The notes under the pieces: model-generated
Told to the model about the DNA's origin: nothing
What the model saw: the letters and a program-made list of their open reading frames with translations, nothing else
Databases searched by the model: none
NCBI GenBank assembly: GCA_017431225.1
Contig: JAFRLM010000018.1
Span: 1 to 64,000, forward strand
DNA: 64,000 bases
Direction: 5' to 3'
Source: Erysipelotrichaceae bacterium
Lineage (GTDB): Bacteria; Bacillota_I; Bacilli_A; Erysipelotrichales; Erysipelotrichaceae
Translations under genes and position numbers: made by a program
Shown here: positions 4,958 through 47,921 of the stretch, piece after piece
Layout of the letters: each line of letters starts with the position of its first letter
Numbering within the stretch: position 1 is the stretch's first letter

Positions 4958-5785
4958 TTAGTGGATGAACAGACGGAGAGCTGCTGTGAAGACAGTCGGT
5001 GTGAGTAAGCAGCCGAGACCTGTGTAGAAGGTAGCGACCATTGCACCGTAAGGAACGAGCTTGGAGTCAACAGCAGCCAGACCACCGGCAGTACCGGAAG
5101 TGGAGCCGATCAGACCACCAAAGATCATAGCAGCAGTCGGGTTGTCAAGCTTGATCTTCTTAGCGATCAGCGGAGCGATGATCATAGCAGCGATGGACTT
5201 AACAGCACCAGCAGCGATGGACAGAGCGACAACGTCGGAGCTTACGCCGAATGCAGCACCTGTGACCGGGCCGACAACGAATGTCTGAACACCAGCACCG
5301 ATAGTAGCGAGTTCGTAAACATCTCTGTAACCGAATACCAGACCAACAACGACACCGATAACGAAGGAGAAGAGAAGACCGAGAGCCAGAGCAACGATAC
5401 CAGCCAGACCAGCCTTGACCAGGTTCTTCGGATCAATACCCCAAGCTGTGGAGATGATTGCGAAGTCACGCATCATGCCGCCGCCGAGGATACCGATACC
5501 ACCGAAGATCGCATATTTCTTCAGGGAGTCACCGGAACCAACTGCGTAAACAACGTCTGTGATACCTTTGGAAGCGGATGTCAGAACACCAGCGTCTAAC
5601 TGTTTGTGAGCGATAACGCCACCGATATAAGCAACGACCAGAGCTAACAGGATCGCGAAAGCGGAACCCATTCTCTTCTGACCGATCAGTTCAGCGATCT
5701 TATAGCCGAGGAATGTAACAACAGCAGTAAGGATGAAGGAACCGACTAAGCCGTAGCCGGAAGCCATTTTAGCAAAAATTGTCAT
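4958..5785 (-). CDS. madM: Malonate transporter, MadM subunit
   Basis: 275 residues, almost all membrane segments with short polar turns, and the Gly-rich GILGGGMMRDFAIISTA that I associate with MadM. In Malonomonas rubra MadL and MadM together form a sodium-linked malonate carrier. It follows madL by 19 bases, the same order as there. The malonate decarboxylation genes are 26 kb away (32.4-37.5 kb), but both promoters carry the same 16-bp element, which supports a shared role in malonate use. Confidence 0.85.
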   Translation of the reverse strand: MTIFAKMASGYGLVGSFILTAVVTFLGYKIAELIGQKRMGSAFAILLALVVAYIGGVIAHKQLDAGVLTSASKGITDVVYAVGSGDSLKKYAIFGGIGILGGGMMRDFAIISTAWGIDPKNLVKAGLAGIVALALGLLFSFVIGVVVGLVFGYRDVYELATIGAGVQTFVVGPVTGAAFGVSSDVVALSIAAGAVKSIAAMIIAPLIAKKIKLDNPTAAMIFGGLIGSTSGTAGGLAAVDSKLVPYGAMVATFYTGLGCLLTPTVFTAALRLFIH

Positions 5786-6827: not shown

Positions 6828-8036
6828 TCATTCGTCGGCTTCGCGGATCTCTACGCTTTGATCCGTTGCTTTCAGCTGTTTTGTGAGATTGCTGTAACAA
6901 ATGTCCGTCTCACCCAGAAGCGAGTAGAAGTATCCGTCCGATTCCGGCAGTTCTCCCTCCTGCAGAGACAGATTGCGGCAGACCGCATCGACCGGATCGC
7001 CGGTATTGCTGATCACATAGGATACCGCGTACTTTTCCTGGGGAATACCCTCCGAAAGATAATACGGATGACGGTAGTGGATATTGCCGTCTTCGCCTGT
7101 GATCGTGTAGTACAGGGAGCTTTCTCCGCCTGCTATCGTGAAGCGGCTCATCGCCATAACGGCTGAAGCCGGCAGGACCGCTACATTCTTCAGCGTATTG
7201 TTCCCGCTGTCAAAGCCGCACAGATTCAAGCCTTCGATGTCGACTTCTCCAAGAAAAACAAGAACTCCACTGTCGCTTTGCAGGAAACCATTCGTCCAGC
7301 CATTGCGGACCAGATCGTCCGCTACAAGACGGAGTACATAAGCATCATGCAGCAGATTCAGATCGATATAATTGGCCGGATATTCATTCTCTGCTATAAA
7401 GTCCAGATATCCTTCGCCCGGCATATAAGTGACTTTATTCCCGTTAAAACGCAGTTCGCCGTGTACGCCTTCTTCCAGAGCCCGAAACGCTTCGATACGT
7501 TCGGCGACATTCGGATCATTTAGCGGATCGCTTTCAAGCGGCTCGCTTAACGATAGCACATCTTCCCAGAGCGCGTAGAGCGGACCGTTGTAGAGGGAAT
7601 AAACATTGCTTCCCCTGCTCTGCGCATCCTTCAGCACAGTGACCAGCTCTTCGCTCAGTTCGATCTCTTCCCCGGGATGATTGTTTAGAGCTGCCAGAGA
7701 AACAATGCTCTCATACTCATTGACCGGATCGAGCTCTTTTACGACTCTGCCCAGAGAGATACTGTAGAAATCACCCAGCTCGCTCTGTTTCTGGCGGATC
7801 TCACCGGAACCTCCTTCGAAATTGTAGTATAAGTGGAATCCGTGATCGTACATCTTGTTCTCAACGTCCGGGTTGGCCTCGACTTCATAAATGCCGGGAT
7901 CTTTATGCATCATCTGACGGATCCCGTAAACAAAGGAAAAGATCGCAACCAGAAAAGCCAAAACAAATAATACTGTTCTGAGTTTTATATGTCTGGTGCT
8001 GAGCACCAGCTGTTCATCTCTTTCGCTATCGAACAT
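6828..8036 (-). CDS. Membrane-anchored ApbE-like protein, probably catalytically inactive
   Basis: 402 residues. One N-terminal membrane segment (TVLFVLAFLVAIFSFVYGI) and then a domain whose landmarks fit ApbE flavin transferases: the stretch ELSEELVTVLKDAQSRG before NGPLYALW, and YIDLNLLHDAYVLRLVADDL aligned with the family's DLGGIAKGYAxDxxxxxL. The GGIAKGY signature is changed beyond recognition, and I do not see the metal-binding Asp/Thr set near the C-terminus. It may be a non-catalytic relative. TATAAT about 25 bases before the start may be its -10. Family call is from pattern memory only. Confidence 0.45.
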   Translation of the reverse strand: MFDSERDEQLVLSTRHIKLRTVLFVLAFLVAIFSFVYGIRQMMHKDPGIYEVEANPDVENKMYDHGFHLYYNFEGGSGEIRQKQSELGDFYSISLGRVVKELDPVNEYESIVSLAALNNHPGEEIELSEELVTVLKDAQSRGSNVYSLYNGPLYALWEDVLSLSEPLESDPLNDPNVAERIEAFRALEEGVHGELRFNGNKVTYMPGEGYLDFIAENEYPANYIDLNLLHDAYVLRLVADDLVRNGWTNGFLQSDSGVLVFLGEVDIEGLNLCGFDSGNNTLKNVAVLPASAVMAMSRFTIAGGESSLYYTITGEDGNIHYRHPYYLSEGIPQEKYAVSYVISNTGDPVDAVCRNLSLQEGELPESDGYFYSLLGETDICYSNLTKQLKATDQSVEIREADE

Positions 8037-43278: not shown

Positions 43279-43306
43279 GCTGGATCCAAAAACGGATCCG
43301 GCTTTT
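43279..43306 (+). terminator. Terminator of pgm
   Basis: GCTGGATCC-AAAAAC-GGATCCGGC stem followed by TTTT, 30 bases after the stop codon. Confidence 0.8.
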
Positions 43307-43375
43307 CAGTCGCTTCCGGGAAAACGTAGATCATCGCGCGCCTGCGCAAAGAAGCGGGAAACAGCCACAATACGC

Positions 43376-43400
43376 AAAAGACACCGGGCCGGTGTCTTTT
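43376..43400. terminator. Terminator of the reverse transcriptase gene
   Basis: AAAAGACACC-GGGCC-GGTGTCTTTT, symmetrical, 24 bases beyond the RT stop on the minus strand. Confidence 0.85.
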
Positions 43401-43423
43401 TCTTCAGAGTGCGGATCTGGAAA

Positions 43424-44635
43424 TTATTGATCCCGTAATTCCTTGTTTTCCTTCTTCCAGCGGTAGTATTCCGCTGTCAGAGGGGTATAGCCGAGTCTTT
43501 TCAGCTGTTCATAGGTGATGCGGAAGTTGCCTTTGCGGTGTCTTCCGGAAGAGAGATAGCGCAGGTATTCCTGCATGCAGCGGTCGATCTCTTTCAAACC
43601 GTCCGTGCGGGTCAAAAGCGGGAAATAGAAGCGGGACCAGGTAAAATCATTCGTTCCGCTGAGATCGAAGAACTTGTAGTCAAAGCTGCGGATCATTGCG
43701 GAAGCCGCTTTTTCAAACAGGATCCCCTTCCGTTTCATATTACGGCGGATCTTCCGCGCCTTGCGGCGGATCTTCGCTTTCATCTTTTTTACAGTAACAG
43801 CGGACAGATCGATCTCTCCCCGGTGCCAGGAAAAACCGAGGAACTCCCACGGTTCTCCGGGCTGTGAGATATGCAGCTTCTCCGGATTCAGTTCCAGTTT
43901 TTTCTCTGCAAGCTCCGCCTTCAGCAGGGCATCATACTTTTCTTTCTGTGCTTCGTTCTCGTAGAAGATCAGGATATCGTCGGAATAGCGGAAATACGGG
44001 ATCTCCACTTCCGCGAACAGAAGATCCAGGCTGCGCAGATAGAAATTCGCAAAGAAGCTTGCCAGCGGGACTCCGGCCATTGCGCCGTGTTTCTCGCGGA
44101 TCACCTCACCGTTATAGCGGCAGCGCTCTTCTGTCAGCAGTTTTTCCAGAAAAGCATAAAGCGCAGGATCGTCCCGCAGGACTTCTTTCAGGATCTCCAG
44201 CAGCTGGGGGACATCGATCGAATTAAAGTAATTGCGGACATCAAGCTTCACAACGATCCTGTCATCGACCTCCGGGATCTTCCGGATCCTGTCAAACGCT
44301 GTCTTTGCGGTGATGCGGCGGCGGAAGGAATAACAATTGTCCGACAGCTCCCCATCATAGCGGTAAAGCAGCCAGGCAAGCATCTTCAGGATCCAGGTCT
44401 CCTCTCTGTTAAAACAGTAGACAGTCCGTTTCTTATTGGAACCGGCTTTTGAAAGGATGCATTTTTCCGGCAGGGAGAAGGAAAGTGTTTCCGCCATTGG
44501 CAAATAGGCTTTTTCCGCAAGAAAAAGATCCAGCTCCTTCATTTCCTTTTTATTGAGCTGCCCGTGTTCGTTTTTCCAGTCGCGGAACTCCTGCCAGCGG
44601 GCGGGTTCGCGCAGTTCATCGAGAAGGCTTTTCAT
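43424..44635 (-). CDS. Lone reverse transcriptase, retron-like or unknown-group
   Basis: 403 residues from ATG at 44635 (a TTG at 44641 is in frame). Palm motifs: YSFRRRITAKTAFDRI, KLDVRNYFNSID with Asp132, AGVPLASFFANFYL, catalytic YSDD (217-220), and WEFLGFSW. The basic C-terminal region (from about 280) has no HNH, maturase X or Cas1 domain. The PLAS-FFAN form is not that of diversity-generating elements, and the NAxxH and VTG retron motifs are absent. No Shine-Dalgarno site is seen; a folded RNA ends 6 bases upstream of the ATG. It may be an antiphage RT of the DRT/Abi-like classes. Family not settled. Confidence 0.85.
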   Translation of the reverse strand: MKSLLDELREPARWQEFRDWKNEHGQLNKKEMKELDLFLAEKAYLPMAETLSFSLPEKCILSKAGSNKKRTVYCFNREETWILKMLAWLLYRYDGELSDNCYSFRRRITAKTAFDRIRKIPEVDDRIVVKLDVRNYFNSIDVPQLLEILKEVLRDDPALYAFLEKLLTEERCRYNGEVIREKHGAMAGVPLASFFANFYLRSLDLLFAEVEIPYFRYSDDILIFYENEAQKEKYDALLKAELAEKKLELNPEKLHISQPGEPWEFLGFSWHRGEIDLSAVTVKKMKAKIRRKARKIRRNMKRKGILFEKAASAMIRSFDYKFFDLSGTNDFTWSRFYFPLLTRTDGLKEIDRCMQEYLRYLSSGRHRKGNFRITYEQLKRLGYTPLTAEYYRWKKENKELRDQ

Positions 44636-44641
44636 AAACAA

Positions 44642-44778
44642 AAAAAGAAAGAGAAAACGCTTTGAAGTAAGCTGTGCTTACGATACCGGACGGTACCTGA
44701 TCCAACTGCCTGCAAAGTGTTTCCGGGGATCAGGCTGCGGCCGCCGCAGGCGCAATGAATGCTTTTCTCTTTCTGTTT
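44642..44778 (-). ncRNA. Structured RNA with terminal inverted repeat, msr-msd-like
   Basis: Read on the minus strand. AGAAAGAGAAAA with its exact complement (44646-44657 / 44763-44774) closes the segment, extended by GC/GC past a bulged C and by AAA/TTT outside. Inside are four hairpins: 44735-44740/44744-44749 (6 bp), 44696-44703/44727-44734 (8 bp, 23-base loop), 44684-44687/44692-44695 (4 bp, tetraloop) and 44667-44672/44676-44681 (6 bp). The paired ends recall a1/a2 of retron RNA. It begins about 10 bases after the stop of the upstream gene. Confidence 0.65.
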
Positions 44779-44788
44779 ATTCCTCAGA

Positions 44789-45322
44789 TCACAGGTATTT
44801 ATGCAATCTGTCGGAAATGTATTCGGTAGTATTCGGATAGTGTTCGACGAAATTCAAAAACGGAATGCCGCGTTTTTCGGCTTCTTCCCGGCTCCAGCGG
44901 TACTCGCGATGCGCGGTCGTTGTCTTCCCGATCAGCATCAGAATGAGTTTCGGGGATCCACCGTCGTAGATGACGATCGAATAATCCATGAACCGGCCTT
45001 CGCCTCCCAGTTCCTTCGGGGAGACGTTTTCCCGCACCTTGTATTGCGGGAATTCGTTTGCCAGCACATTCAGTATACGCTGACGGCTGGTCAGCCCGTC
45101 TTCTGTTTCTTTCAGATACTCGTCCTTTTTCGTTTCTTCCGCTTCTTTCTTCTGAGCTTCCGTCTGGAATTCATCGACGGCTTTCTTCAGTTCGTCCGCG
45201 TGTTCGTTGATCGTGTCTTTCAGAGAATTGAAAAGAGCGGCTGCCTTTTCCTTATTCTCCTCGGTGGCGATCTCTTTCAGGGCTTCAGCGCCTTCTTTGA
45301 GCAGTTTGTCTAACAGTCCCAT
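44789..45322 (-). CDS. Uncharacterised protein upstream of the RT and its RNA
   Basis: 177 residues. Residues 1-80 form charged, probably coiled-coil helices (KLLKEGAEALKEIATEENKEK, DELKKAVDEFQTEAQKKEAEE). The rest looks alpha/beta: RFMDYSIVIYDGGSPKLILMLIGK, then helix, then IPFLNFVEHYPN. The strand-Asp-strand-Lys order faintly recalls the PD-(D/E)XK fold, but the acidic residue before the Lys is missing, so I do not call it a nuclease. A good ribosome-binding site (AGGAGG) precedes the ATG. It shares a transcription direction with the folded RNA and the RT. Confidence 0.65.
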   Translation of the reverse strand: MGLLDKLLKEGAEALKEIATEENKEKAAALFNSLKDTINEHADELKKAVDEFQTEAQKKEAEETKKDEYLKETEDGLTSRQRILNVLANEFPQYKVRENVSPKELGGEGRFMDYSIVIYDGGSPKLILMLIGKTTTAHREYRWSREEAEKRGIPFLNFVEHYPNTTEYISDRLHKYL

Positions 45323-45402
45323 GATATTTCCTCCTGCAAGAATAACAGCTCTCCGGAAACCGGAGACAGAGGATGGATGATGTGGTGGTTCTTCTTTCTT
45401 TT

Positions 45403-45411
45403 ATCATACCA
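45403..45411 (-). promoter_or_regulatory. Extended -10 element upstream of the RT locus
   Basis: Minus strand TGGTATGAT, an extended -10; the -35 region is weak. A CTCCGG/CCGGAG hairpin (45352-45366) lies in the leader. It is the only promoter-like site I see for the 177-residue gene, RNA and RT. Confidence 0.4.
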
Positions 45412-45437
45412 TACTTATACAGAAGGAAACAGACGGA

Positions 45438-47921
45438 TCAGATGTACTTTCCGGTGATACTGTTAGGATTACTGCGGACTTCTTCCGGTGTGCCGCAGGC
45501 GACGATCCTGCCGCCGTCTTCTCCGCCGCCCGGACCCATGTCGATCAGATAATCGGCGCTGCGGATCACATCAAGATCATGTTCGATCACGAGCACGGTA
45601 GCGCCGTTGTCGATCAGCGTACGGAAGACCTGCAGGAGCGTTTCGATATCCTGCGGATGCAGACCGATCGTCGGCTCATCGAAGACGAAGACCGAATCAT
45701 TCTGCTGACGCCCCATTTCGCTGGCAAGTTTCAGACGCTGGGCTTCGCCGCCGGATAAGCTCGGCGTCTCCTCACCCAGTGTCAGGTAACCCAGTCCGAG
45801 ATCACGCAGGATCTCCAGTTTCGGGCGGACAGCGCCGAGGTCCCTGCAGAAACGCACAGCGGTGCTGACATCCATATCCATGACTTCCGGAAGGGAACGG
45901 GTCTCCCCGGCTTTGTTGGTAAAGCGGATCCTTTTCGCCGTTTTGGAATAACGGGAGCCGCGGCATTCCGGACAGGGGATATCTACATCCGGAAGGAACT
46001 GCACGTCTAGTGAGATCTCACCGGTCCCGTCGCAGACCGGGCAGCGCAGGGAACCGGTATTATAGGAGAAGTCGCCGGCTTTATATCCCAGTGCTTTCGC
46101 CTCCTTCGTGCGTCCGTAGATCTTGCGCAGCTCATCGTGCACATTGGCGTAGGTGGCGACGGTCGAGCGGACGTTGATGCCGATCGGAGTCGCGTCGATC
46201 AGTTTGACGTGGTGAATGCCTTCCGCCTCGATGCGGTGGATATGCGCCGGCATCGCTTTGCTGTTGCACAGGGCGTCCAGACCCGGCACAAGACTTTCGA
46301 GGACCATCGTCGTTTTTCCCGAGCCGGAAACACCAGTCACGACGGTCAGCTTATTCTTCGGAATGCGTACATTCAAAGGGTGAACGGTATGGATCTGTTC
46401 TGTTTCGAGAAGGATCTCCCCTTTCGCGAAAAGATCTTCCTTCTTCGCCACATGGACCGGTTCACGCCCGAGATATTTTCCGATCAGGGAGCGCGGATCC
46501 TTTTCGATCTCTTCGACTGTTCCTTCGGCGACGACCTGACCGCCCTCGGCACCGGCCTGCGGACCAAGTTCGATCAGCCAGTCGGATTCCTTCAGGATCT
46601 GGGTATCATGGTCGACCAGGAGCACGGAGTTTCCGTCCCCAACGAGGTCATGCATGACGGCGTTAAGACCGAGGATATTTGCCGGATGCAGTCCGATCGA
46701 GGGTTCATCCAGTACATATAAGACACCGGTCGTGCGGTTGCGGACCGCTCTCGCCAGCTGCATGCGCTGACGCTCACCGGTCGAAAGCGTGGAGGAGGCA
46801 CGGTCCAGGGTCAGGTAGCTGAGACCGAGATCCATCAGCCGTTTGGCGACTTCAAGATACGATTCGCAGATATTCTTCGCCATCTCCCTCATTTCTTCGG
46901 GGAGCGAATCCGGGACTTTCTTTACCCATTCGATCGATTCCTTCAGGCTCATCTGACAGGCCTGGTCCAGCGAGATCCCCATGATCCTGGGGGCTCTGGT
47001 AGCTTCGGACAGACGGGTCCCGTGACATTCCGGACAGACATCTTCCTTTAAGAACTTCTCGACCCGTTTCATGCCCTTTTCGTCCTTGACTTTGCTGAGG
47101 GCGTTCAGGACCGTGGCGGTCGCGCTGTAATAGGTAAAATCCATCTCGGTCGCGATCGGGTTGGACTTGTCTTTGGGACGGTAGAAGATATGCTTCTTGA
47201 CCATCGGTCCGTCATAGACGATCTCTTTTTCCTCATCGGTCAGATCCTTAAAAGGAACGTCTGTACGCACGCCCATTGCCCGGCAGACGTCGGTCATCAG
47301 TGCCCACATCAAGGAATTCCAGGGGGCTACGGCTCCCTCGTCGATCGTAAGATCCTGGTTCGGGATCAGGGTGCTGCGGTCAACGGTGCGCACCATGCCG
47401 GTGCCGCCGCAGCATTTGCAGGCGCCCTGGGAGTTGAAAGCAAGCTCTTCCGCTCCGGGACCGTAAAAGTGTTCCCCGCATTCGGGGCAGACGATCTCCT
47501 GCATCGTCGCGACCGCAAAGCTCGGCTTCTGGTAATGGCCGTTGGGACAGCGGTGGCTGGAAAGACGTGAGAACATTAAACGCAGACTGTTGAGCAGTTC
47601 CGTCCCGGTACCGAAAGTGGAACGGATGCCCGGGACCGAGGGACGCTGATGCAGAGCCAGCGAAGCCGGAACATAAAGGACATCATCGACATCGGCGCGG
47701 GAAGCCTGGGTCATGCGTCTTCTGGTATACGTTGATAAGGATTCAAGGTACCGGCGGGAGCCTTCCGCATAAAGAACACCCAGCGCCAGCGAGGACTTTC
47801 CGGAACCGGATACACCGGCAATGCCGACGATCTTGTTCAGCGGGATGTCCACATCGATATTTTTCAGATTGTGCACGCGGGCGCCGCGCACCAGGATCTT
47901 ATCCGGGGTCTCTTTATTCAT
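45438..47921 (-). CDS. UvrA-like excinuclease ATPase (short UvrA2 form)
   Basis: 827 residues against about 940 for UvrA. Two ABC ATPase modules: Walker A GVSGSGKSS and GVSGSGKTT, signatures STLSTGERQRMQLARAV and SLSGGEAQRLKLAS, Walker B VLYVLDEPSIGLHP and VFVFDEPTIGLHP. Zinc fingers: CPECGEHFYG...CKCCGGTG, and CPVCDGTG...CPECRGSRY. The shorter form with first signature STGE is typical of UvrA paralogues, some of which give resistance to DNA-damaging drugs. Monocistronic. Confidence 0.88.
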   Translation of the reverse strand: MNKETPDKILVRGARVHNLKNIDVDIPLNKIVGIAGVSGSGKSSLALGVLYAEGSRRYLESLSTYTRRRMTQASRADVDDVLYVPASLALHQRPSVPGIRSTFGTGTELLNSLRLMFSRLSSHRCPNGHYQKPSFAVATMQEIVCPECGEHFYGPGAEELAFNSQGACKCCGGTGMVRTVDRSTLIPNQDLTIDEGAVAPWNSLMWALMTDVCRAMGVRTDVPFKDLTDEEKEIVYDGPMVKKHIFYRPKDKSNPIATEMDFTYYSATATVLNALSKVKDEKGMKRVEKFLKEDVCPECHGTRLSEATRAPRIMGISLDQACQMSLKESIEWVKKVPDSLPEEMREMAKNICESYLEVAKRLMDLGLSYLTLDRASSTLSTGERQRMQLARAVRNRTTGVLYVLDEPSIGLHPANILGLNAVMHDLVGDGNSVLLVDHDTQILKESDWLIELGPQAGAEGGQVVAEGTVEEIEKDPRSLIGKYLGREPVHVAKKEDLFAKGEILLETEQIHTVHPLNVRIPKNKLTVVTGVSGSGKTTMVLESLVPGLDALCNSKAMPAHIHRIEAEGIHHVKLIDATPIGINVRSTVATYANVHDELRKIYGRTKEAKALGYKAGDFSYNTGSLRCPVCDGTGEISLDVQFLPDVDIPCPECRGSRYSKTAKRIRFTNKAGETRSLPEVMDMDVSTAVRFCRDLGAVRPKLEILRDLGLGYLTLGEETPSLSGGEAQRLKLASEMGRQQNDSVFVFDEPTIGLHPQDIETLLQVFRTLIDNGATVLVIEHDLDVIRSADYLIDMGPGGGEDGGRIVACGTPEEVRSNPNSITGKYI

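What the first reader, a model, noticed from the sequence alone, without database searches (positions are those of the whole stretch)
43424..45322. Retron-like locus: lone reverse transcriptase behind a folded RNA with long terminal repeats
Seen: on the minus strand a 137-base segment (44642-44778) is closed by a 12-bp exact inverted repeat, extended to about 17 bp, and holds four hairpins. It ends 6 bases before the ATG of a 403-residue RT with a YSDD active site. Known: retrons and several antiphage RT systems (DRT classes) have a structured RNA directly 5' of the RT, and retron RNAs have paired ends (a1/a2). The RT lacks the retron NAxxH and VTG motifs and the group II maturase domain. Inference: this RT copies its own upstream RNA and belongs to an uncharacterised or little-known class, perhaps defensive.
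Basis: partly seen in the sequence, partly recalled or inferred. Interest (0 to 1): 0.9.

Follow-up and report, generated by a model that had tools for sequence, protein, structure and literature searches.

The report
UG26 reverse transcriptase with RT-5 RNA
A gut-type bacterium carries a three-part cassette, a small nuclease-fold protein, a folded RNA and a reverse transcriptase, whose parts are each already catalogued but whose function nobody in the papers searched has tested, and which most likely copies a short stretch of its own RNA into DNA as a defence against phages.

Summary
The RNA upstream of the RT is Rfam RT-5 (RF03026, 84.6 bits), and the RT is PADLOC class UG26 (488 bits). It is neither a retron nor a group II maturase. 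Both labels were already public, so the RT class is not uncatalogued.

New here, from 40 homologous RNAs:
1. So do a 5' hairpin and a 6-bp pseudoknot that Rfam's nested model lacks. One hairpin of the single-sequence fold is not supported.
2. The RNA occurs in 39 of 41 family genomes with a UG26 RT and in 0 of 232 without.
3. A third part, the 177-aa protein upstream (PADLOC RTasCOG2852, PD-(D/E)XK-like fold without catalytic residues), accompanies nearly all of them. Other neighbours vary, so this is a three-part cassette.
4. Size and layout match the published DRT10 ncRNA: 137 nt, terminal helix, and a single-stranded segment after the last stem-loop at nt 113-120 (DRT10 template 107-115). 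In UG26 that segment, UUCAAAGC, is the only long invariant unpaired run.

Best reading: an uncharacterised antiphage RT of DRT class-2 type that reverse-transcribes part of its own RNA. Template use, priming and defence are inferred. One divergent copy sits beside an AbiO/Nhi defence gene.

The parts
43424..44635 (-). UG26-class reverse transcriptase, 403 aa, YSDD at residues 217-220; C-terminal Tyr375 and Tyr383 invariant in 45 of 45 relatives
   Evidence: PADLOC RT_UG26 488.1 bits, E 3.9e-147; Pfam RVT_1; alignment A2; AF2 model pLDDT 93.6; tree; motifs
44644..44778 (-). Extended RT-5 RNA (terminal helix to terminal helix)
   Evidence: Rfam RF03026 covers 44653-44755, 84.6 bits; extended model R1 built here 145.5 bits over 44644-44778 (the window was in the model); covariation
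44763..44774 (-). P1 5' strand, AGAAAGAGAAAA, pairs with 44646-44657
   Evidence: 93.3% of cells paired, 9 of 12 pairs with two-sided changes; outside the Rfam model
44646..44657 (-). P1 3' strand, UUUUCUCUUUCU
44752..44762 (-). P2 hairpin GCA/UGC (longer in Lachnospiraceae)
   Evidence: 94.2% paired, 2 of 3 pairs with two-sided changes; not paired in the Rfam consensus
44746..44751 (-). Pseudoknot 5' strand GCCUGC, pairs with 44708-44713
   Evidence: 99.2% paired, 28 cells changed on both sides, 0/500 shuffles
44708..44713 (-). Pseudoknot 3' strand GCAGGC in the apical loop of P3
44687..44743 (-). P3 stem-loop (three helical segments)
   Evidence: 83-95% paired per helix, nearly every pair covaries; also in Rfam RT-5
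44667..44681 (-). P4 hairpin GUAAGC-ACA-GCUUAC
   Evidence: 86-98% paired with two-sided changes
44659..44666 (-). Invariant unpaired UUCAAAGC between P4 and P1: candidate template (inferred)
   Evidence: per-column identity 1.00,1.00,1.00,1.00,1.00,0.95,0.97,0.85 over 40 RNAs; nt 113-120 of the 137-nt segment
44789..45322 (-). 177-aa accessory protein, COG2852/PD-(D/E)XK-like fold, no conserved catalytic residues, N-terminal helical region
   Evidence: same place and strand in about 40 loci; PADLOC RTasCOG2852 in 27 of 36 members; alignment A1; AF2 model with alpha-beta-beta-beta-alpha-beta-alpha core
44785..44810 (-). P0 hairpin across the stop codon of the accessory gene (Erysipelotrichaceae only)
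   Evidence: 90.8% paired, covariation score 0/500, but number of pair types not above shuffles, and partly coding

Best explanation
The locus is a three-part cassette: accessory protein, RT-5 RNA, UG26 reverse transcriptase. Shown by sequence: the parts, their order, the RNA structure and their co-inheritance. Inferred: the RNA is bound by the RT and is its dedicated template, in the manner of DRT9 and DRT10. The terminal helix and pseudoknot form a scaffold; P4 sets the 5' template boundary; the invariant single-stranded UUCAAAGC is copied, probably repeatedly, into a short-repeat cDNA containing GCTTTGAA, primed by a C-terminal tyrosine (Tyr383 or Tyr375). The cDNA or the RT-RNA complex is released or changed on phage infection, with the nuclease-fold protein as DNA-binding sensor or effector, giving antiphage defence.
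For: RT is UG26 by full-length profile, and all 45 relatives match it; next PADLOC models include UG17/DRT10, UG4, UG27, Drt3a, Drt2, Drt9. RNA is RT-5 with a covarying terminal helix and pseudoknot. RNA in 39 of 41 family genomes with a UG26 RT, in 0 of 232 without. Accessory gene conserved while further neighbours are not. DRT10 has a 137-nt ncRNA with a central stem, four smaller stem-loops, a template loop at nt 107-119 just after the last stem-loop, repeat synthesis and priming by a C-terminal Ser/Tyr (PMC12632851); DRT9 primes from C-terminal tyrosines and has its ncRNA immediately upstream (PMC12483538); DRT2's ncRNA is pseudoknotted (PMC12039810 abstract). UG26 RNA has UUCAAAGC at nt 113-120. 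A UG26 relative only 27% identical (L100) has, 1.7 kb upstream on the same strand, an RNA with an 11-bp P1, a GUCCGC/GCGGAC pseudoknot and UUCAAAGG although the surrounding sequence is different. In L085 the gene next to the RNA is AbiO/Nhi, a PADLOC defence family (502.9 bits).
Against: No experiment. The window locus lies between housekeeping genes (a uvrA-like ABC ATPase gene and a phosphoglucomutase gene), not in an evident defence island, and no neighbourhood-wide defence count was made. UG26 was not recovered from IMG/VR, plasmid or phage collections. The template is chosen by conservation and position only; unlike DRT10's variable template it is invariant, and an A-B-A' repeat is present only as UU...UU, which the U-rich P1 strand gives for free. 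The accessory protein's fold is weakly matched (best Foldseek E 0.05).
Confidence: 0.6

Rival explanations
1. The RNA is a cis-regulatory leader: it controls transcription or translation of the RT gene (for example autoregulation by RT binding) and is not copied.
For: It ends only 5-20 nt before most RT start codons and the window RT has no obvious Shine-Dalgarno sequence; median stop-to-P1 distance is 13 nt, so it lies in the spacer of an operon.
Against: In L100 the RNA precedes two SpoU-type genes and is 1.7 kb from the RT; in L092 a strong GC hairpin with a U run lies between RNA and RT; in L151 an RNA of the same fold is 12 kb from the RT. RNAs in this position next to DRT2 and DRT9 are templates.
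Confidence: 0.17
2. The RT-RNA pair is real but serves another role than phage defence, for example a stress response or a domesticated housekeeping function.
For: Found on chromosomes between housekeeping genes, kept in all four genomes of the window's genus, absent from the mobile collections searched.
Against: Neighbours differ between lineages, presence is patchy (41 of 273 genomes), AbiO/Nhi adjoins one copy, characterised UG relatives are antiphage.
Confidence: 0.16
3. A retron: the terminal repeats are a1/a2 and the RNA gives msDNA.
For: Structured RNA with paired ends directly upstream of a single-domain RT.
Against: No NAxxH in any of 45 RTs; VTG absent in the window and in 39 of 45; NCBIfam retron_St85 41 bits against a cut-off of 235; RNA is RT-5, no retron RNA family matched; profile is UG26.
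Confidence: 0.04
4. A degraded group II intron maturase carrying part of its intron.
For: Best solved-structure matches are group II RTs (GsI-IIC); TIGR04416 105 bits.
Against: TIGR04416 cut-off is 300 bits; no group II intron RNA in the window by Rfam; in the tree UG26 and UG27 are split from local group II RTs with support 100/98, and UG26 is one group at 99/94; full-length UG26 profile.
Confidence: 0.03

Closest known systems
PADLOC class RT_UG26 (unknown-group RTs, DRT)
   Same: The RT matches the model over its full length (488 bits); all 45 relatives match.
   Different: The one relevant paper held here that mentions UG26 reports it only as an annotation (PMC10504277); no function was found. 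The link to RT-5 RNA and the RNA structure are worked out here.
Rfam RT-5 RNA (RF03026)
   Same: P3 and P4 match at 84.6 bits.
   Different: The RNA is longer: terminal helix P1 and hairpin P2 lie outside or unpaired in the Rfam consensus; the pseudoknot is not in its nested structure. Whether the original authors drew it could not be checked.
DRT10 (UG17) with SLATT protein and 137-nt ncRNA (PMC12632851)
   Same: RT + ncRNA + one accessory protein; terminal/central stem with smaller stem-loops; single-stranded segment after the last stem-loop near nt 110-120; RT profile similarity (101 bits).
   Different: Accessory is nuclease-fold, not SLATT; candidate template invariant, not variable; gene order accessory-RNA-RT instead of RNA-SLATT-RT (but L100 has RNA-accessories-RT).
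DRT9 (PMC12483538, PMC12489045)
   Same: ncRNA immediately upstream of RT, protein priming from C-terminal tyrosines, fixed template sequence; among the best structural matches (Foldseek E 1.3e-12, TM 0.63).
   Different: DRT9 template is poly-U giving poly-dA and the system has two components; UG26 segment is UUCAAAGC and there is an accessory gene.
DRT2
   Same: Pseudoknotted ncRNA beside the RT; Foldseek hit (9c0i).
   Different: DRT2 copies about 120 nt by rolling circle to make a gene; RT-5 has no such long template region.

Membership tests
UG26 reverse transcriptases | Full-length match to the PADLOC RT_UG26 profile, far above other RT classes | tested here: met
   488 bits over 2-397 of 398; next best 108 bits
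UG26 reverse transcriptases | Groups apart from group II RTs in a tree | tested here: met
   99/94 for UG26, 100/98 for UG26+UG27 versus group II and other viral RTs; retron, DGR and most UG references were not available, so exact placement untested
RT-5 RNA (RF03026) | Covariance-model score above the gathering threshold (45.7 bits) | tested here: met
   84.6 bits, all 104 positions
Class 2 DRT (ncRNA-templated) | Dedicated conserved ncRNA in cis | tested here: met
Class 2 DRT (ncRNA-templated) | RT synthesises cDNA templated by that ncRNA | not testable with these tools
   needs cDIP-seq or miniprep-seq
Class 2 DRT (ncRNA-templated) | Phylogenetic placement in class 2 of the UG tree | tested here: inconclusive
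   PADLOC cross-hits rank class 2 types DRT10, Drt3a, Drt2, Drt9 high, but no reference sequences for a tree; the classification paper is not held
Class 2 DRT (ncRNA-templated) | Protein priming by C-terminal Tyr/Ser | not testable with these tools
   Tyr375 and Tyr383 invariant in 45 of 45: compatible only
Class 2 DRT (ncRNA-templated) | Antiphage activity | not testable with these tools
   needs plaque assays
Retron | RT motifs NAxxH and VTG | tested here: not met
   NAxxH in 0 of 45; VTG not in the window protein
Retron | 2'-5' branched msDNA | not testable with these tools
   needs sequencing
Group II intron | Catalytic intron RNA around the RT and maturase-level profile score | tested here: not met
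   No group II RNA family in window; TIGR04416 105 of 300 bits
PD-(D/E)XK nuclease (accessory protein) | alpha-beta-beta-beta-alpha-beta core | tested here: inconclusive
   AF2 order of elements fits, pLDDT mostly above 90 in that part; Foldseek best hits TnsA, Bax1, VRR_NUC but E about 0.05 or worse
PD-(D/E)XK nuclease (accessory protein) | Conserved D...(D/E)XK catalytic residues | tested here: not met
   D/N mixed at the first site, hydrophobic residues where E-x-K should be

The most novel reading that the evidence does not exclude
UG26 is a telomerase-like defence RT with a universal fixed template: one invariant octamer, UUCAAAGC, kept across RTs with down to 27% identity, is copied into a constant short-repeat DNA, which a catalytically dead nuclease-fold protein recognises; the RT-RNA core has been combined with different partners (nuclease-fold protein, AbiO/Nhi, SpoU methylases).
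Probability: 0.22. Interest if true: 0.8.

Novelty: new member of a known kind. Interest (0 to 1): 0.52.

Why it matters
Two public catalogue entries of unknown function, the RT-5 RNA and the UG26 RT class, turn out to be the two halves of one cassette with a third protein, and the RNA has a terminal helix and a pseudoknot that its public nested model does not show. This gives a ready construct and a single eight-base prediction (cDNA containing GCTTTGAA) with which to ask whether the ncRNA-templated, protein-primed DNA synthesis found in DRT9 and DRT10 extends to a family in rumen and gut Firmicutes. If the template is invariant, the product's sequence, not just its repetitiveness, may be what matters for immunity.

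Tried and rejected
Retron and group II readings: rejected. The single-sequence hairpin CUGCGG/CCGCAG: rejected for the pseudoknot. Mobile origin: UG26 not recovered from IMG/VR (28 hits; of the five best, about 25% identical, the three tested are UG27), plasmids (the listed hits are group II RTs) or phages. An RNA for UG27 phage loci: none by Rfam or model R1. Reference sequences of UG17, UG27 and UG4 from 195 genomes of the phylum: none found, so a tree with DRT references was not possible. An empty site for the cassette in a fourth genome of the genus: gene order there differs, so no clean empty site. Promoter scan of the window: no sigma-70-like site in 43300-45700. RNA near the divergent UG26-like RTs L108, L109, L110: none found, L108 being at a contig end. 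The 2022 UG classification paper and the 2017 paper reporting the RT RNA motifs are not held, so what they said about UG26 partners or an RT-5 pseudoknot could not be checked.

Full report
WHAT IS THERE. On the minus strand of the window a 403-aa reverse transcriptase (43424-44635) is preceded by a 137-nt segment (44778-44642) and, before that, by a 177-aa ORF (44789-45322). The segment folds better than 199 of 200 shuffles (z = -3.63).

WHAT IT IS CALLED. Rfam identifies the RNA as RT-5, RF03026, 84.6 bits against a threshold of 45.7, the only Rfam match in the window. PADLOC identifies the RT as UG26, 488 bits over its full length, the next model scoring 108. The upstream ORF is a weak match to PADLOC RTasCOG2852 (32 bits, full length); 27 of 36 homologues match it too. 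So all three parts had been catalogued before; in the papers searched, no function of UG26 or RT-5 was found.

RELATIVES. One scan of species genomes gave 14 relatives from uncultured Erysipelotrichaceae and Lachnospiraceae, several of them rumen or gut samples. Of 273 genomes of the window's family, 41 have an RT with more than 200 bits to UG26 and 39 have an RT-5 RNA at E <= 0.001; all 39 are among the 41, and none of the 232 others has the RNA. Thirty-six of the 39 exceed the Rfam threshold. In all but one the RNA lies next to the RT as far as inspected; the exception is G426 (below).

RNA STRUCTURE. Forty homologous RNAs were aligned by sequence (A3) and the structure tested: 93.4% of 1745 cells pair; 35 of 44 pairs show two-sided changes; no shuffle of 500 reaches any of the five measures; sliding the partner by 1-3 columns drops pairing to 41-48%. 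The terminal helix P1 holds on its own, including compensatory versions such as GAGAGAGAAA/UUUCUCUCUC and GGGGAAGGGAA/UUCCCUUCCCC. A pseudoknot joins GCCUGC (44751-44746) to GCAGGC (44713-44708) in the loop of P3: 99.2% paired. The competing hairpin of the minimum-energy fold has no support. A further hairpin across the accessory gene's stop codon is conserved in Erysipelotrichaceae, with weaker statistics because it is partly coding. A nested fold prediction alone misses the pseudoknot.

THE INVARIANT SEGMENT. Between P4 and the 3' strand of P1 lies UUCAAAGC (44666-44659), unpaired and invariant at its first five positions in 40 RNAs, 85-97% at the rest. It is the longest conserved unpaired run. 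In the most divergent linked RNA (L100) it reads UUCAAAGG although P1, P2, the pseudoknot and P3 there have different sequence; in that single RNA the segment can also pair with a GAGGCUUU upstream, so its single-strandedness there is uncertain.

THE THIRD PART. Forty-one locus records (about 40 distinct loci) have the accessory gene immediately upstream on the same strand. Its AF2 model has a confident C-terminal domain with the element order of the PD-(D/E)XK core and a helical N-terminal half of low confidence. Foldseek's best hits are TnsA, Bax1 and VRR_NUC, all nucleases of that fold, at E about 0.05 or worse: suggestive only. The catalytic D...(D/E)XK is not conserved. Median distances are 13 nt from its stop codon to P1 and 11 nt from P1 to the RT start, so the RNA is probably cut from, or made alongside, the operon transcript. 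Genes further out are not conserved between lineages: the cassette is the unit.

RT PLACEMENT. The model (pLDDT 93.6) is closest among solved structures to the group II RT GsI-IIC and, among defence RTs, to DRT9 (TM 0.63) and DRT2. In a tree of 75 RTs, UG26 forms one group (99/94), joined by UG27 (100/98), apart from group II RTs of the same bacteria. References for retrons, DGRs and most UG classes were missing, so the deeper position is open.

MECHANISM. Class 2 UG enzymes studied so far copy a template in their ncRNA: DRT2 rolling circle, DRT9 poly-dA, DRT10 tandem repeats, DRT3a poly-dTdG (PMC12632851, PMC12483538, PMC13174585). [quoted passage not shown] priming is by a C-terminal Ser or Tyr. 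RT-5 with its terminal helix has about the same length, a terminal helix, stem-loops, and its invariant single-stranded segment at nt 113-120 directly after P4. The RT has two invariant C-terminal tyrosines, 375 and 383. From this I infer templating by UUCAAAGC, repeat or single copy, and Tyr priming. Steps shown: parts, structure, linkage. Steps inferred: RNA-RT binding, template, priming, product, defence, role of the accessory protein. My confidence: dedicated RNA partner 0.85, template for cDNA 0.7, defence 0.7, this octamer as template 0.35.

EVIDENCE ON DEFENCE. For: the characterised UG relatives discussed in the papers read are antiphage; patchy distribution; variable sites; AbiO/Nhi (502.9 bits) beside a divergent copy, L085, absent in its close relative L089. 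Against: no defence island at the window locus, and none of the viral, plasmid or phage collections yielded a UG26 RT.

ODD CASES. L100: RNA, then two SpoU-methylase-like genes (Pfam PF00588, 81.2 and 23.4 bits; the second below the cut-off), then a UG26 RT (274.7 bits). L085/L089: RNA of the same layout with P1 GUAAAGGAGA/UCUCCUUUAC. G426: an RNA of the same fold (Rfam 42.1 bits, below threshold; 24.6 bits with R1) next to IS200/IS605-type tnpA/tnpB-like genes, with the UG26 RT 12 kb away. These suggest an RT-RNA core that can act at a distance and change partners, but each is one or two cases.

VERDICT. A genuine, well-conserved ncRNA-RT-protein cassette; a member of catalogued families (UG26, RT-5) with new structural detail and a testable template prediction, not a new kind of system.

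Noticed in passing
L151 (G426:C12:11000-20000), 5326-5450 minus: RT-5-like RNA with an 11-bp P1, UCCAGC/GCUGGA pseudoknot and P4, not next to an RT but next to IS200/IS605-type tnpA- and tnpB-like genes; the genome's UG26 RT is 12 kb away without an adjacent RNA. Split cassette or trans pairing.
   Followed up: partly
L100, 9200-11021 minus: Divergent UG26 RT in an apparent operon RNA - SpoU-like methylase - second SpoU-like protein - RT, with a TATAAT just before the RNA's first paired base.
   Followed up: partly
L085, 6335-7777 plus: AbiO/Nhi defence gene (PADLOC 502.9 bits) directly upstream of a divergent RT-5-type RNA and UG26 RT; absent at the corresponding place in L089.
   Followed up: partly
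L092, between RNA (7724-7824) and RT start (7877): A strong GC hairpin with U run, CCGUCCGGCAG..CUGCCGGACGG UUUU, between RNA and RT suggests that the RNA ends there as a separate transcript.
   Followed up: no
L111, L113, L115 (IMG/VR contigs): UG27-class RTs (268-316 bits) on viral contigs, sister to UG26 in the tree; L113 has no intergenic space for an upstream RNA.
   Followed up: partly
window 44785-44810 minus: Hairpin spanning the accessory gene's stop codon, kept in Erysipelotrichaceae but not in Lachnospiraceae; possible processing site of the operon RNA.
   Followed up: partly
L080/L052 (G489:C8): A further UG26 copy in one genome whose RT frame is broken by one in-frame TAA, with intact RNA and accessory gene.
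   Followed up: no
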